This document shows positions 142 to 44,325 of a stretch of 49,020 nucleotides of DNA, piece by piece; positions within the stretch are counted from its first letter, which is position 1; the number at the start of each line of letters is the position of its first letter. Source of the stretch: a virus; the IMG/VR virus record IMGVR_UViG_3300050011_000260, positions 1 to 49,020 of that record; one strand, 5' to 3'. Below the pieces are notes generated by a model. That model was not told where the DNA came from, made no database searches, and saw only the letters and a list, made by a program, of their open reading frames with translations. Position numbers and translations under genes: made by a program.

Positions 142-217
142 TGGTGGGAAGGGAGGGATTCGAACCCTCGACCTTCCGCTTGAAAACGGGTGCCGTTCCG
201 CTGGGCGTCACGCTAAA
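142..217 (-). tRNA. Degenerate tRNA-like element, possible tRNA-Glu(TTC)
   Basis: The 3' half is convincing: T arm GAGGG-TTCGAAT-CCCTC, acceptor 3' strand CCTTCCC and encoded ACCA. The anticodon loop reads TTTTCAA (TTC). The 5' half is poor: no GGGAAGG is present to pair with the acceptor, and the anticodon stem is mispaired. It could be a decayed tRNA or need trans-editing. The 5' boundary is approximate. Confidence 0.4.
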
Positions 218-811: not shown

Positions 812-888
812 TGGTCAGGGTGAGAGGATTTGAACCTCCGACCTCGCGCTCCCGAAGCGTGCACTCTACCAAGCTGAGCTACACCCTG
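812..888 (-). tRNA. tRNA-Pro(CGG)
   Basis: Minus-strand cloverleaf with acceptor CAGGGTG/CACCCTG, anticodon loop TTCGGGA, T loop TTCAAAT, A73 and encoded CCA. The C1-G72 pair and A73 fit bacterial tRNA-Pro. One mismatch is seen in the anticodon stem. Confidence 0.88.
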
Positions 889-1089: not shown

Positions 1090-1605
1090 TCATTCGCTGG
1101 CTGGCACCATATCAAACAACCCAGATAATCCGGGTGGAGCCCCAACCAGTTCGTACAGCACTCGGCGATAGCCAAAATCAGCGGCGAAACGAATCTTTTT
1201 CCTTTGTTTACTCTTCGGCGGCTCCAGTCTAAGATACCCGTTACGACGACCGAGCAGCTTCGGCGGAACCAAGAACAACTGCTGTGTCTTATCCTCGTAT
1301 GCCCCTATGAAATCGACGATATCGACATACGACTCGCCACGGTTGTTCGATGTTTTGAAGATAAAAACACCATCCCGCAAGTACCCAGTTTTCGTCTGGA
1401 TCGAGTAAAACTTCCCAGCAACCTCGATCACCAGATCGTAGGGTCGGTGCTGTCCGAACGGCACCAAAACGCCAGCCACAAAATCAGCCGCCAGCAACAG
1501 CGACAGTACCTTTGCCTCAGCCTTTAAGCCTTTAGCTAAATGATCCTGCCCCTTGAGGCGGTTGTCCACGTCTTTTGCGAGATACTCGAAAAATTCATCA
1601 TCCAT
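1090..1605 (-). CDS. PD-(D/E)XK endonuclease-like protein
   Basis: 171 aa from ATG at 1605 (MDDEFFEYL). The central region has the nuclease-fold pattern: an acidic residue in RPYDLVIEV about residue 67, then FYSIQTKTG about residue 78, i.e. D-x(n)-x-x-Q/E-x-K. It resembles the PF11645-type PD-(D/E)XK endonucleases, a group that includes homing enzymes associated with tRNA genes. The start sits 6 nt after a TATAAT box (1612-1617), suggesting a leaderless mRNA; an in-frame ATG 18 nt further upstream overlaps the -10 box and is less likely. Flanked by tRNA-Pro genes, which fits a mobile element in a tRNA array. Family assignment is by motif only. Confidence 0.65.
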   Translation of the reverse strand: MDDEFFEYLAKDVDNRLKGQDHLAKGLKAEAKVLSLLLAADFVAGVLVPFGQHRPYDLVIEVAGKFYSIQTKTGYLRDGVFIFKTSNNRGESYVDIVDFIGAYEDKTQQLFLVPPKLLGRRNGYLRLEPPKSKQRKKIRFAADFGYRRVLYELVGAPPGLSGLFDMVPASE

Positions 1606-1626
1606 GCAAACATTATACAACAAATT

Positions 1627-1703
1627 TGGTCGGAGAGGCGGGATTTGAACCCGCGACCCCTTGCGCCCAAGGCAAGTGCGCTACCAAGCTGCGCTAATCG
1701 CCG
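1627..1703 (-). tRNA. tRNA-Pro(TGG)
   Basis: Cloverleaf with anticodon stem CTTGC/GCAAG and loop CTTGGGC (TGG), T arm GCGGG-TTCAAAT-CCCGC, C1-G72, A73 and encoded CCA. Two acceptor positions look mispaired. Confidence 0.85.
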
Positions 1704-1781: not shown

Positions 1782-1856
1782 TGGTCGGCGTGGCGAGGAT
1801 CGAACTCGCGACCCCTTGTCCCCCAGACAAGTGCGCTACCGCTGCGCTACACACCG
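1782..1856 (-). tRNA. tRNA-Pro(GGG)
   Basis: Cloverleaf with anticodon stem CTTGT/ACAAG, loop CTGGGGG (GGG), T loop TTCGATC, C1-G72, A73 and encoded CCA. Completes a CGG/TGG/GGG proline set with its neighbours. Confidence 0.88.
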
Positions 1857-2398: not shown

Positions 2399-2488
2399 TG
2401 GTCGGCGTAAGAGGATTTGAACCTCTAGGGTCGTATTGACACTCGCATCCGAAGCGAGACGGCTACCGGATTACCGTTCTATACACCG
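2399..2488 (-). tRNA. Class II tRNA with Pro anticodon (CGG)
   Basis: A 90-nt cloverleaf: acceptor CGGTGTA/TACGCCG, 4-nt spacer, D stem ACGG/CCGT, perfect anticodon stem CTCGC/GCGAG with loop TTCGGAT (CGG), then a 15-nt variable arm that can fold as GTC-AATAC-GAC, T arm AGAGG-TTCAAAT-CCTCT, A73 and CCA. Long variable arms normally mark Leu, Ser or Tyr, so a proline anticodon here is unusual. C1-G72 and A73 also fit proline. Aminoacylation identity is uncertain. Confidence 0.75.
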
Positions 2489-2530
2489 AAACAGGCCCGA
2501 TGCTTTCGCAGAGCGGGTACATCTAAATTT

Positions 2531-2617
2531 TGGTCGGGGTGGGGAGATTCGAACTCCCAGTGATCTTATCTCCCGCTTCCAAAGCGGGTCGGCTCCCAAC
2601 TACCGATTTACACCCCG
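2531..2617 (-). tRNA. Class II tRNA with Pro anticodon (TGG)
   Basis: 87-nt cloverleaf built like its neighbour: acceptor CGGGGTG/CACCCCG, 4-nt spacer, D stem TCGG/CCGA, no base between D and anticodon stems, CCCGC/GCGGG with loop TTTGGAA (TGG), 13-nt variable arm (GAT-AAG-ATC), normal T arm, A73 and CCA. Same oddity: class II shape with proline anticodon. Confidence 0.75.
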
Positions 2618-6322: not shown

Positions 6323-6399
6323 TGGTGTCGGGAGGGGATTCGAACCCCCGGGGACGGTGATTTTGAGGCACCGATGTCTGCCAGTTGCATCACCCCGAC
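6323..6399 (-). tRNA. tRNA-Leu(CAA)-like, without a long variable arm
   Basis: Acceptor GTCGGGG/TCCCGAC, D region like the neighbouring tRNA-Leu genes (GGCAGACAT), anticodon loop CTCAAAA (CAA), A73 and CCA. Unlike true tRNA-Leu it has only a short variable region, and its T loop is one base short unless a G-T pair opens. It may be a derived or weakened tRNA-Leu. Confidence 0.65.
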
Positions 6400-35774: not shown

Positions 35775-37778
35775 TTAGTCGTGGATTGCCGTGACGTTGA
35801 TGGTCACGTTTGTGTGCGGAATAGAATCGTTATTTTCAATCCATACGATCACGCCATTACCCGGTGTCGCCTGATAATTGATGCAGGTGATAAGAAGTGC
35901 TGGTGACGCCGCAATGGTTGGAGTGCCGGGTGCTTCGCCACAAGTCACTGAGCATTGTACTGTGTAATTTCCATCTGCAAACGGTGTTGTGAAGTTGACC
36001 GTCCACGGTCCCGTTACTGGATTTCCTTGATTCACGGTGCCAATGTTCAAACGCACGGTCTGCGAAACAGAAGTGCCGCTGGGTGGTAAGGGAGCAGCCG
36101 AGAACAATCCTGTGCTTGCACTGTAGCCCGTGAGATATTCGAATTCGGGAGGCGACCCCGCTGGTGTTGGGGTGAACGTCTGCGGTAGAACTGGGGTCTG
36201 CCATGCGGGTATGCCGCCGACTACCGTCAACACTTGACCCGTTGTGCCGATTGGCAAACGTAATGGGCCGAGCACTGGAGGGGAACCAACAGTCAGCCCC
36301 TCGTAGATCATGTCCCCATTGGTGGTCATGGGGTTGACGAAGATGCTGCTGAGCACACCCCCCAAAGAAATGCCCGAATCCAGCGTGTTGCCGAACGTGT
36401 CAAAGGTGACGATATCACCAGCAGTGATAGTACCGCCAGCCCCCGCTGGAACTGTGACGGCTGTTGCGGCTGGGATCGAGACTGCCCCATCACCGCCGCC
36501 CACAGCAAGTGCGCGACCCGACAAGATGCCGCCGCCTAACGTAATAGACCCATAAGCAAGGATACTGCCGACCATCGTGCTGGGAGCAACCGATGTGAAA
36601 TCACTGCCGACTACCCAGACCACATTCGCTGCTTGGGCACCATTGACCAAAAGAACATCCGAGCCGCTTTCGAGCGTTACGGTGGAAGCTGCAATAAATA
36701 CAAATACTGCACCCGCATCCCCCTGAGCATCGAGAGTGATGCTCGTCGGGATATCCAAAGCCCCGCCTGAGAATACGCCAGCGTAGTAGACACCCGCTCC
36801 CCCGCCACCGTCGTTGGCGCTGAGGTCTGCGAGACCCGACTGAGTTGGGGTCAAACCACTATAGTAGAGAAATGCGGTCTGACCATCAGTACGTGCTGCT
36901 GGGGCATCCGCATTGTCCACTGTTGCAGTAGGTGGATTAAACCCAGTGATGCTCATGGTCGGGGCTGAACCGATAACACCACCCGCTATTGAGGTTGCTG
37001 GATCGGCGTTTGTGATTCCACTGTACGCCAATAAAGCATAATTAGCTGACGATCCCAATTCCGTAGTGACGGGCGATGGAGGCGATACAACCCCAGTTAA
37101 TTGAACAAAAGCCCCTGTACCCTGAACACTGCACAATTGAGTGGTGGCGAGGCAGCCTGAGATGCGGGAAAAATCGTTAAAGCCTGCAAGAAATATCGCC
37201 GTCACAACATTTGGAGCGGTGAAAGCCACGACGTACCCAACGGTCTGATCGAGACTAGGACTTGATGGTCGAGTGAGAGTGATGCCGCCCGGGGTCACGG
37301 ACGATAAGTAAACTTCCTGACCGACACTGCTGAGAGAAAATTCGCTGTTTGGATCGATGTAGGTAAAAAGTCCACTGAATGCAATAGTACCGGGATGCCC
37401 AGCGTCGATAGGGGATGTTAGGAAACCTTGAGCGGACAAGGATGGGGTCGGCGGTGACCCACCGCCAGCATCGGCATACTCTGCCGTCAGAACACCGCCG
37501 ACACTGTAGAGGTGAACAAGCGGGGCACCTAACTGAAGGTTTACACCAGCAGTAGCGGTTGCACCTGTATTTAGCAACGATGAGTCGATGACGCCGTTCG
37601 GGTTGAGAACTACAGGCACGCCATACGATGCGGCTCCAAGCGAAGGCACGGTCACACCATCACAAGCCGTCACAATGTCAATCAGATTCGATCCCGTCTG
37701 ATTAGGCACGATGGGAGGCGCGGGCTGTTGGTTTGCCTTGACGTTAAAAACGCACACGCGGGTGGGTCCGTTCCCCAT
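35775..37778 (-). CDS. Fibre-like virion protein with DUF3494 ice-binding domain, 667 aa
   Basis: Residues ~240-445 match the DUF3494 (type I ice-binding, beta-solenoid) family: ANYALLAYSGITN, GGVIGSAPTMSITGF, GVFSGGALDIP, SITLDAQGDAGAVFVF, NGAQAANVVWVVGSDFTS and GSILAYGSITL...GRALA in the expected order. No signal peptide. The N-terminal ~235 residues are Gly/Ser/Thr/Pro-rich; residues ~480-530 (NPMTTNGDMIYEG, RLPIGTTGQVLTVVGG) are typical of phage fibre linker repeats. A downstream virion-type gene (38352) and an HNH insertion surround it. Likely binds ice, glycans or a surface. Confidence 0.82.
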   Translation of the reverse strand: MGNGPTRVCVFNVKANQQPAPPIVPNQTGSNLIDIVTACDGVTVPSLGAASYGVPVVLNPNGVIDSSLLNTGATATAGVNLQLGAPLVHLYSVGGVLTAEYADAGGGSPPTPSLSAQGFLTSPIDAGHPGTIAFSGLFTYIDPNSEFSLSSVGQEVYLSSVTPGGITLTRPSSPSLDQTVGYVVAFTAPNVVTAIFLAGFNDFSRISGCLATTQLCSVQGTGAFVQLTGVVSPPSPVTTELGSSANYALLAYSGITNADPATSIAGGVIGSAPTMSITGFNPPTATVDNADAPAARTDGQTAFLYYSGLTPTQSGLADLSANDGGGGAGVYYAGVFSGGALDIPTSITLDAQGDAGAVFVFIAASTVTLESGSDVLLVNGAQAANVVWVVGSDFTSVAPSTMVGSILAYGSITLGGGILSGRALAVGGGDGAVSIPAATAVTVPAGAGGTITAGDIVTFDTFGNTLDSGISLGGVLSSIFVNPMTTNGDMIYEGLTVGSPPVLGPLRLPIGTTGQVLTVVGGIPAWQTPVLPQTFTPTPAGSPPEFEYLTGYSASTGLFSAAPLPPSGTSVSQTVRLNIGTVNQGNPVTGPWTVNFTTPFADGNYTVQCSVTCGEAPGTPTIAASPALLITCINYQATPGNGVIVWIENNDSIPHTNVTINVTAIHD

Positions 37779-41136: not shown

Positions 41137-41529
41137 TTTTGCGTCAGCCCTGTAAGCGGGGTTCTGTGAGCATTGCTGCCCGACGATCATTCCTCTAGGC
41201 GTTGAGTTACCCCAACGCTCAAGCACTCTACCCGCTGATTGATAACGACCCGAACAGAGTCTCTCAGCCTATTTGAGCTTGCACCGCGTAGAGGTTGCCC
41301 GTTTCACCCGAACTAAATCGGTTCGTCACTGTTGCCCTATTCGTCAACCTTCCATCGGGGGACATGGTTGGGCTTTCGCGCTTCCATGCACACCCGGCTA
41401 CCTCGGTTGCTCGGTTTCTCTCCGATACGCTGTTCTATGGTGCCCCGACTTTCCTCCCCTGCTGGCGTCTCTCCCACTTAGAGGCGGGCAACTACCAGTC
41501 AGCGGCAATCGTCTGGCACTGACACAAAA
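41137..41529 (-). ncRNA. rnpB: RNase P RNA, bacterial type
   Basis: About 393 nt. The ends pair as an 11-bp P1 (TTTTGTGTCAG with CTGACGCAAAA). From 5' to 3' the RNA carries GCCAGACGATTGCCGC, GGGGAGGAAAGTC (P4 5' strand), CCATAGAACAG, GGTGCAAGCTCAAATAGG (P10/P11), TTGAGCGTTGGGGTAAC, CTAGAGGAATGATCGTC (J5/15) and ACAGAACCCCGCTTACAG (P4 3' strand), all in the order of bacterial type A RNase P RNA. It processes 5' leaders of pre-tRNAs. It is embedded in the tRNA array between tRNA-Gly and tRNA-Cys. No RNase P protein gene is seen in the window, so it would use the host protein or act alone. Confidence 0.92.
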
Positions 41530-44243: not shown

Positions 44244-44325
44244 TCTCGGGGTGGTCGGGAATCGAACCTAACTTCCTTCCTACGCAACTCTGTAGGTGTG
44301 CTTCCGTTACACCATCACTCCCGAG
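44244..44325 (-). tRNA. Degenerate tRNA-like element
   Basis: Ends pair (CTCGGG/CCCGAG) and a TTCGATT T loop is present, but the T stem is weak, the anticodon loop is 8 nt without U33 (CCTAC-AGAGTTGC-GTAGG) and no CCA follows. First element on the transcript from the 44449 promoter. Confidence 0.4.

What the first reader, a model, noticed from the sequence alone, without database searches (positions are those of the whole stretch)
2399..2617. Two class II tRNAs carrying proline anticodons
Both have variable arms able to form hairpins, a 4-nt acceptor-to-D spacer and no base 26, yet anticodons CGG and TGG and C1-G72/A73 of tRNA-Pro. Three normal tRNA-Pro genes sit beside them. They may decode proline codons with another amino acid, escape cleavage by host anticodon nucleases, or be unusual substrates of ProRS.
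Basis: seen in the sequence. Interest (0 to 1): 0.72.

Follow-up and report, generated by a model that had tools for sequence, protein, structure and literature searches.

The report
Phage proline tRNAs with extra arm
Large phages carry working-looking proline tRNAs that have grown the long extra arm normally reserved for leucine, serine and tyrosine tRNAs, a body plan that I found in dozens of phage contigs but in cellular genomes only on two phage- or plasmid-like contigs.

Summary
In detail: 2399-2488 (-) and 2531-2617 (-) are two tRNA genes with proline anticodons (CGG, TGG), C1-G72, A73, encoded CCA and a 13-15 nt variable region that forms a 3-bp arm. It is not chance: pattern scans and a structural parse gave 58 distinct tRNAs of this kind, nearly all in IMG/VR phage contigs, and the arm covaries (middle pair Watson-Crick in 40 of 40 of the window's type, all four pair types). 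Most members have A37 instead of the G37 of cellular tRNA-Pro. With the discriminator left free, all kept A73 and 56 of 58 C1-G72, so ProRS charging is likeliest. Recoding is not supported: conserved prolines in the phage's ribonucleotide reductase use CCA and CCG. In 24 of 50 records no class I tRNA-Pro was found. Of 84,980 cellular species genomes only two contigs, one phage-like and one a plasmid-like tRNA array, carried one. I read them as genuine prolyl-tRNAs rebuilt to be independent of m1G37 and perhaps of host tRNA-targeting factors; that last step is inference.

The parts
2399..2488 (-). class II tRNA-Pro(CGG): acceptor 2482-2488/2403-2409, linker and D-arm 2459-2481, anticodon arm 2442-2458, anticodon CGG 2449-2451, A37 at 2448, variable region 2427-2441, T-arm 2410-2426, A73 at 2402, CCA 2399-2401
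2531..2617 (-). class II tRNA-Pro(TGG): acceptor 2611-2617/2535-2541, linker and D-arm 2589-2610, anticodon arm 2572-2588, anticodon TGG 2579-2581, A37 at 2578, variable region 2559-2571, T-arm 2542-2558, A73 at 2534, CCA 2531-2533; identical in L120, L122 and L123
2427..2441 (-). 15-nt variable region of the CGG gene, 3-bp hairpin U(GUC)AAUAC(GAC)CCU
   Evidence: covariation; fold contains it
2559..2571 (-). 13-nt variable region of the TGG gene, 3-bp hairpin A(GAU)AAG(AUC)ACU
   Evidence: covariation; not in the single-sequence minimum-energy fold
812..888 (-). ordinary class I tRNA-Pro(CGG), G37, 9-nt D-loop
1627..1703 (-). class I tRNA-Pro(TGG), G37, two acceptor-stem mismatches in this window (the same gene in L120 is fully paired)
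1782..1856 (-). ordinary class I tRNA-Pro(GGG)

Best explanation
They are real prolyl-tRNAs with a class II body. Shown: two genes with intact stems, a covarying variable arm, a re-spaced D-arm, A37, proline anticodons and the C1-G72/A73 end of bacterial tRNA-Pro; many phage relatives; in about half of the carrier records, no other tRNA-Pro was found. Inferred: phage transcripts are processed, host ProRS charges them with proline, and they read CCA/CCG (and wobble partners) as proline during infection. Inferred, and less sure: the rebuilt core and A37 free the tRNA from host dependencies. A37 removes the need for TrmD's m1G37, and the arm and altered D-arm change the face that host modification enzymes, EF-P or tRNA-cutting defences recognise, so that proline decoding continues when the host's own tRNA-Pro is depleted, cut or under-modified.
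For: ARAGORN and the structural parse. 58 distinct sequences; with a free discriminator all have A73, 56 C1-G72 and 2 A1-U72. Covariation in the variable arm and D-stem. No class I match in 24 of 50 carrier records, including records of 252, 160, 135, 109 and 99 kb. The TGG gene is identical in contigs whose marker protein is only 80-84% identical, which suggests selection or recent exchange. CCA and CCG at conserved prolines. ProRS identity elements in PMC9976931. A37 tRNAs escape m1G37 deficiency in evolved E. coli trmD strains, PMC8643618. Types with an ordinary Pro D-arm plus an inserted hairpin (L177, L181, L197, L005, L071) look like tRNA-Pro that gained the arm. RNA ligases (T4 Rnl1-like or RtcB) occur in 8 of 39 carrier records, and a kinase-phosphatase-ligase lies beside the Variovorax array.
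Against: No expression, charging or modification data. The window's two tRNAs lack the G15-C48 Levitt pair and m1G37, which help E. coli ProRS, so charging could be slow. The phage still carries three class I tRNA-Pro genes, so these two could be spares here. A37 also occurs in class I phage tRNA-Pro (13 of 45), so it is not tied to the arm. RNA ligases are common in large phages (general knowledge) and no background rate was measured. No host defence acting on tRNA-Pro was identified.
Confidence: 0.72

Rival explanations
1. Recoding tRNAs: a synthetase that likes long variable arms (LeuRS, SerRS, TyrRS) charges them, so some proline codons are read as another amino acid.
For: Long variable arm with A73, as in tRNA-Leu and tRNA-Tyr; the arm-base geometry (1 nt 5', 3 nt 3') matches phage tRNA-Tyr.
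Against: C1-G72 in 56 of 58, whereas phage Tyr and Ser and most Leu tRNAs have G1-C72; geometry unlike Ser (1,1) and Leu (0,1 or 1,2); conserved prolines at CCA/CCG in RNR; in 24 of 50 records they are the only tRNA-Pro found.
Confidence: 0.05
2. Defence decoys or spares: they are made mainly to absorb or survive a host tRNA nuclease and carry little of the decoding load.
For: Duplicate anticodons beside class I genes in the window; phage tRNAs with altered anticodon loops are reported to evade tRNA-targeting defences (PMC10264068); RNA-repair genes in some carriers.
Against: Many carriers have no other tRNA-Pro and otherwise broad tRNA sets; charging and pairing features are conserved; no matching nuclease is known.
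Confidence: 0.12
3. Drift only: phage tRNAs tolerate odd shapes, and the arm has no purpose beyond ordinary codon supply.
For: Other class I isotypes (Ile, Asn, Thr, Met, Gln, Lys, Trp, Cys) sporadically carry long arms in phages; other tRNAs in the window look degenerate.
Against: Covariation of the arm, an invariant U13.G22 and fixed arm-base spacing show constraint; the arm occurs on at least two different D-arm backgrounds.
Confidence: 0.2
4. Re-anticodoned tRNA-Leu or tRNA-Tyr that evolved into a tRNA-Pro, so the arm is inherited rather than gained (a rival about origin, not about function).
For: tRNA-Leu already has A73 and needs one anticodon change (UAG to UGG); Tyr-like arm base; Leu and Tyr are frequent D-arm neighbours of the window type.
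Against: The 5' half is closest to tRNA-Pro (230 of 400 nearest neighbours against 15 Leu), though some library entries were mis-trimmed relatives; types with a plain Pro D-arm exist.
Confidence: 0.25

Closest known systems
Bacterial class I tRNA-Pro (including phage tRNA-Pro such as that of phiKZ)
   Same: Proline anticodon, C1-G72, A73, CCA, reads CCN
   Different: The new ones add a 12-19 nt variable arm; the window type also has a 5-nt linker, U13.G22 instead of a G-C pair, and A37 instead of G37
Class II tRNAs (Ser, Leu, Tyr; Sec)
   Same: Long variable arm with hairpin; A37 as in Ser, Tyr and many Leu; arm-base spacing as in phage Tyr
   Different: Proline anticodon and acceptor end; 5-nt linker before the D-stem
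Naturally occurring non-canonical tRNAs reviewed in PMC7609411 (Sec, Pyl and others)
   Same: Natural departures from the textbook cloverleaf
   Different: These keep a 7/5 acceptor/T arm and a sense anticodon; the review mentions neither proline nor phages
Phage tRNAs that evade tRNA-targeting defences (PMC10264068)
   Same: Phage tRNA clusters with changed anticodon-loop positions
   Different: Here the change is in the body plan; that paper does not mention proline or variable arms; evasion is not shown here

Membership tests
Bacterial tRNA-Pro | NGG anticodon (G35, G36) | tested here: met
   CGG and TGG
Bacterial tRNA-Pro | C1-G72 and A73 | tested here: met
Bacterial tRNA-Pro | G15-C48 Levitt pair | tested here: not met
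   A15-U48 (CGG) and G15.U48 (TGG); G15-C48 in only 3 of 40 of this type
Bacterial tRNA-Pro | G37 (site of m1G37) | tested here: not met
   A37 in both; in 150 Pseudomonadota genomes every listed match was a G37 tRNA-Pro(UGG) read one base out of register (ends TCCCA), none ended TCCAA or TCCGA as A37 would
Bacterial tRNA-Pro | Short (4-5 nt) variable loop | tested here: not met
   15 and 13 nt
Bacterial tRNA-Pro | Charged with proline by ProRS | not testable with these tools
   needs aminoacylation assay
EF-P-responsive tRNA-Pro | 9-nt D-loop closed by a 4-bp D-stem with G-C at 12/23 and 13/22 (PMC4890201) | tested here: not met
   U13.G22 in 40 of 40; D-loop 9 nt in half and 8 nt in half; the response itself was not tested
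Class II tRNA | Variable region of 10 nt or more forming an arm | tested here: met
Class II tRNA | Isotype Ser, Leu, Tyr or Sec | tested here: not met
   proline anticodon and acceptor end
Recoding tRNA | Codon read as a non-cognate amino acid | tested here: not met
   5 CCA/CCG codons at conserved RNR prolines; one protein only
Defence-evading phage tRNA | Resistance to a named tRNA-cutting defence | not testable with these tools
   no nuclease identified

The most novel reading that the evidence does not exclude
Large phages systematically convert class I tRNAs, proline above all but also Asn, Ile, Met, Thr, Gln, Trp, Lys and Cys, into class II tRNAs as a general way to build a translation-ready tRNA set that host modification needs and tRNA-targeting defences do not control.
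Probability: 0.3. Interest if true: 0.85.

Novelty: new variant of a known kind. Interest (0 to 1): 0.66.

Why it matters
The long variable arm is one of the oldest dividing lines among tRNAs and a main identity signal for SerRS, LeuRS and bacterial TyrRS. A phage-carried family of prolyl-tRNAs that crosses it, with A37 in place of the usually essential m1G37 site and a D-arm predicted to be poorly recognised by EF-P, gives a natural test of which tRNA-Pro features translation really needs, and a concrete handle on why large phages carry their own tRNAs.

Tried and rejected
Codon reassignment: rejected on conserved prolines at CCA/CCG in RNR; the helicase had no PDB match to repeat the check. 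Chance folding: rejected by covariation. Single-sequence folding is not decisive: the variable arm is in the minimum-energy fold of the CGG gene but not of the TGG gene. Presence in named phages: blastn with six representatives against 50,697 records gave no match or, in the five records I looked at, only class I tRNA-Pro; the nearest named relative by helicase, Tunturi_5 (43% identity), shows only class I tRNA-Pro. Cellular origin: 35 pattern matches in 84,980 species genomes; only L131 and L147 parse as real. L147's contig has a family B DNA polymerase and helicase of phage families; L131 lies in a tRNA array near secretion and RNA-repair genes. The other matches that I inspected were pseudo-tRNA repeats, masked sequence or unrelated. 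Origin by nearest-isotype comparison was inconclusive for the D-arm alone. A first A37 census pattern slipped one base; its result was read from the matched letters instead. The 10 literature searches found no report of class II tRNA-Pro, but the library lacks most subscription papers (a 2017 paper on novel tRNA cloverleaves was not held).

Full report
WHAT IS THERE. The window is a 49,020-base IMG/VR virus record. Its proteins are phage-like: ribonucleotide reductase, helicase, UvsX-like recombinase. It holds 23 tRNA genes. The two genes of the finding lie on the minus strand at 2399-2488 and 2531-2617. ARAGORN calls both tRNA-Pro. Read 5'-3' they are CGGTGTA-TAGAACGGTAATCCGGTAGCCGT-CTCGC-TTCGGAT-GCGAG-TGTCAATACGACCCT-AGAGG-TTCAAAT-CCTCT-TACGCCG-A-CCA and CGGGGTG-TAAATCGGTAGTTGGGAGCCGA-CCCGC-TTTGGAA-GCGGG-AGATAAGATCACT-GGGAG-TTCGAAT-CTCCC-CACCCCG-A-CCA. 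Acceptor, anticodon and T stems are complete.

A FAMILY, NOT AN ODDITY. A pattern for 'tRNA-Pro end + long variable region + NGG anticodon' was run on viral contigs, followed by a sharper one and one that left the acceptor and discriminator free. Structural parsing gave 58 distinct class II tRNA-Pro sequences (one further hit is a chance match). With the discriminator free, all 58 have A73; 56 have C1-G72 and two A1-U72. They fall into types: the window's type (40 sequences: 5-nt linker, U13.G22, A37); an ordinary Pro D-arm with A37 and a 16-17 nt arm; an ordinary Pro D-arm with G37 and a 12-14 nt arm; a smaller group with an extended linker and G37; and single oddities. The second and third types look like ordinary tRNA-Pro with a hairpin inserted in the variable loop. 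Records reach 463 kb.

STRUCTURE BY COVARIATION. In the 40 sequences of the window's type the D-stem pairs 10-25 and 11-24 are always Watson-Crick and use all four pair types; 12-23 is always G-C and 13-22 always U.G. The variable-arm pairs are Watson-Crick in 38, 40 and 36 of 40, the middle one with all four types (shuffle mean 11). Over all 58, a Watson-Crick hairpin of 3 bp or more is present in 46 against 19 expected. The arm has 1 nt on its 5' side and 3 nt on its 3' side in 38 of 56 Pro; phage Tyr is mostly the same, while Ser (1,1) and Leu (0,1 or 1,2) differ.

POSITION 37. The window's two genes and most of the family (47 of the 58 sequences) have A37. In 150 Pseudomonadota genomes no match with A37 and a UGG or CGG anticodon was seen; every match ended TCCCA, which is a G37 tRNA read one base out of register. 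A37 also appears in 13 of 45 class I phage tRNA-Pro (some loci were fetched with an A37 pattern), so it is a phage habit rather than a mark of the arm. In E. coli, m1G37 supports both frame keeping and prolylation, and A37-bearing tRNAs escape loss of TrmD (PMC8643618; PMC9976931).

WHO CARRIES THEM. In 50 carrier records, 24 gave no class I tRNA-Pro match, among them records of 252, 160, 135, 109 and 99 kb. In L122/L123 the class II gene is the only TGG reader found, and it is identical to the window's although the marker protein is 80% identical. In 84,980 cellular species genomes 35 stretches matched; two parse as real. One (L147, Treponema MAG) lies on a contig with phage-family DNA polymerase and helicase. 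The other (L131, Variovorax sp. WDL1) lies in an array of at least 27 tRNAs on a 245-kb contig that also encodes a kinase-phosphatase-RNA ligase. Blast of six members against 50,697 phage records found none. These absences hold only for the patterns used, which require an encoded CCA.

WHAT THEY DO. Proline decoding is the best reading. The E. coli ProRS determinants G72, A73, G35 and G36 are kept; G15-C48 and G37 are not. The phage's RNR uses CCA at residues 22 and 190 and CCG at 68, 580 and 590 where the solved ribonucleoside triphosphate reductase 1l1l has proline. EF-P needs a 9-nt D-loop closed by G-C pairs at 12/23 and 13/22 (PMC4890201); with U13.G22 the window type should be a weak EF-P partner, which is a testable prediction. 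Why the body was rebuilt is not shown. Independence from m1G37 follows directly from A37. Evasion of tRNA-cutting host systems is in line with known phage tRNA biology (PMC10264068; VapC52 cuts even a variable loop, PMC13273310), and RNA ligases occur in 8 of 39 carrier records, but no control rate was taken and no nuclease is named.

WIDER PATTERN. The same parse found 22 long-armed tRNA copies (some near-identical) of other class I isotypes in phage loci: Ile, Asn, Thr, Met, Gln, Lys, Trp and Cys; 18 of the 22 form a Watson-Crick hairpin of 3 bp or more, against 8.8 expected. ARAGORN calls several at the same places. In L262 a class II Pro, Asn and Met tRNA sit in one array of 29. This suggests that class switching in phages is not limited to proline.

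LIMITS. No expression, charging or modification data; records are often fragments; loci were chosen by a proline pattern, so the relative frequency of proline is inflated; the literature check covers open-licence papers only.

Noticed in passing
window 41140-41522 (-): Bacterial class A RNase P RNA (151 bits) encoded in a phage contig next to a tRNA cluster.
   Followed up: no
window 6323-6399 (-): tRNA-Leu(CAA) call with a short variable loop and weakened stems; the mirror image of the proline case or a decaying gene.
   Followed up: partly
window 1627-1703 (-): Class I tRNA-Pro(TGG) has two acceptor mismatches here but is fully paired in L120, while the class II TGG gene is unchanged.
   Followed up: partly
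window 153-206 (-): tRNA-like stretch (25.8 bits) matching model positions 10-63 only, without acceptor stem.
   Followed up: no
window 44247-44321 (-): tRNA-like gene for which ARAGORN reports a 4-base anticodon (agtt).
   Followed up: no
window 1090-1623 (-): PD-(D/E)XK endonuclease (PF11645) inside the proline tRNA cluster, perhaps a free-standing homing nuclease.
   Followed up: no
window 35775-37778 (-): 667-aa protein with an ice-binding-like domain (PF11999).
   Followed up: no
L214 1552-1638, L223 7965-8051, L262 1096-1183 and 4104-4192, L055 6007-6094, L003 4555: Long-armed tRNAs of other class I isotypes (Asn, Met, Gln, Thr) in phage contigs.
   Followed up: partly
L276 8801-11095 (-), L131: Variovorax sp. 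WDL1 contig with an array of at least 27 tRNAs and a kinase-phosphatase-RNA ligase nearby.
   Followed up: partly
L146 4437-4670: Tandem truncated tRNA-Pro repeats after a complete tRNA-Pro gene in Alishewanella; similar matches in Arsukibacterium.
   Followed up: no
L114 7888-7964 and 8409-8483: Two tRNAs with CTA anticodon (ARAGORN: Pyl) and a tmRNA in one phage tRNA array.
   Followed up: no
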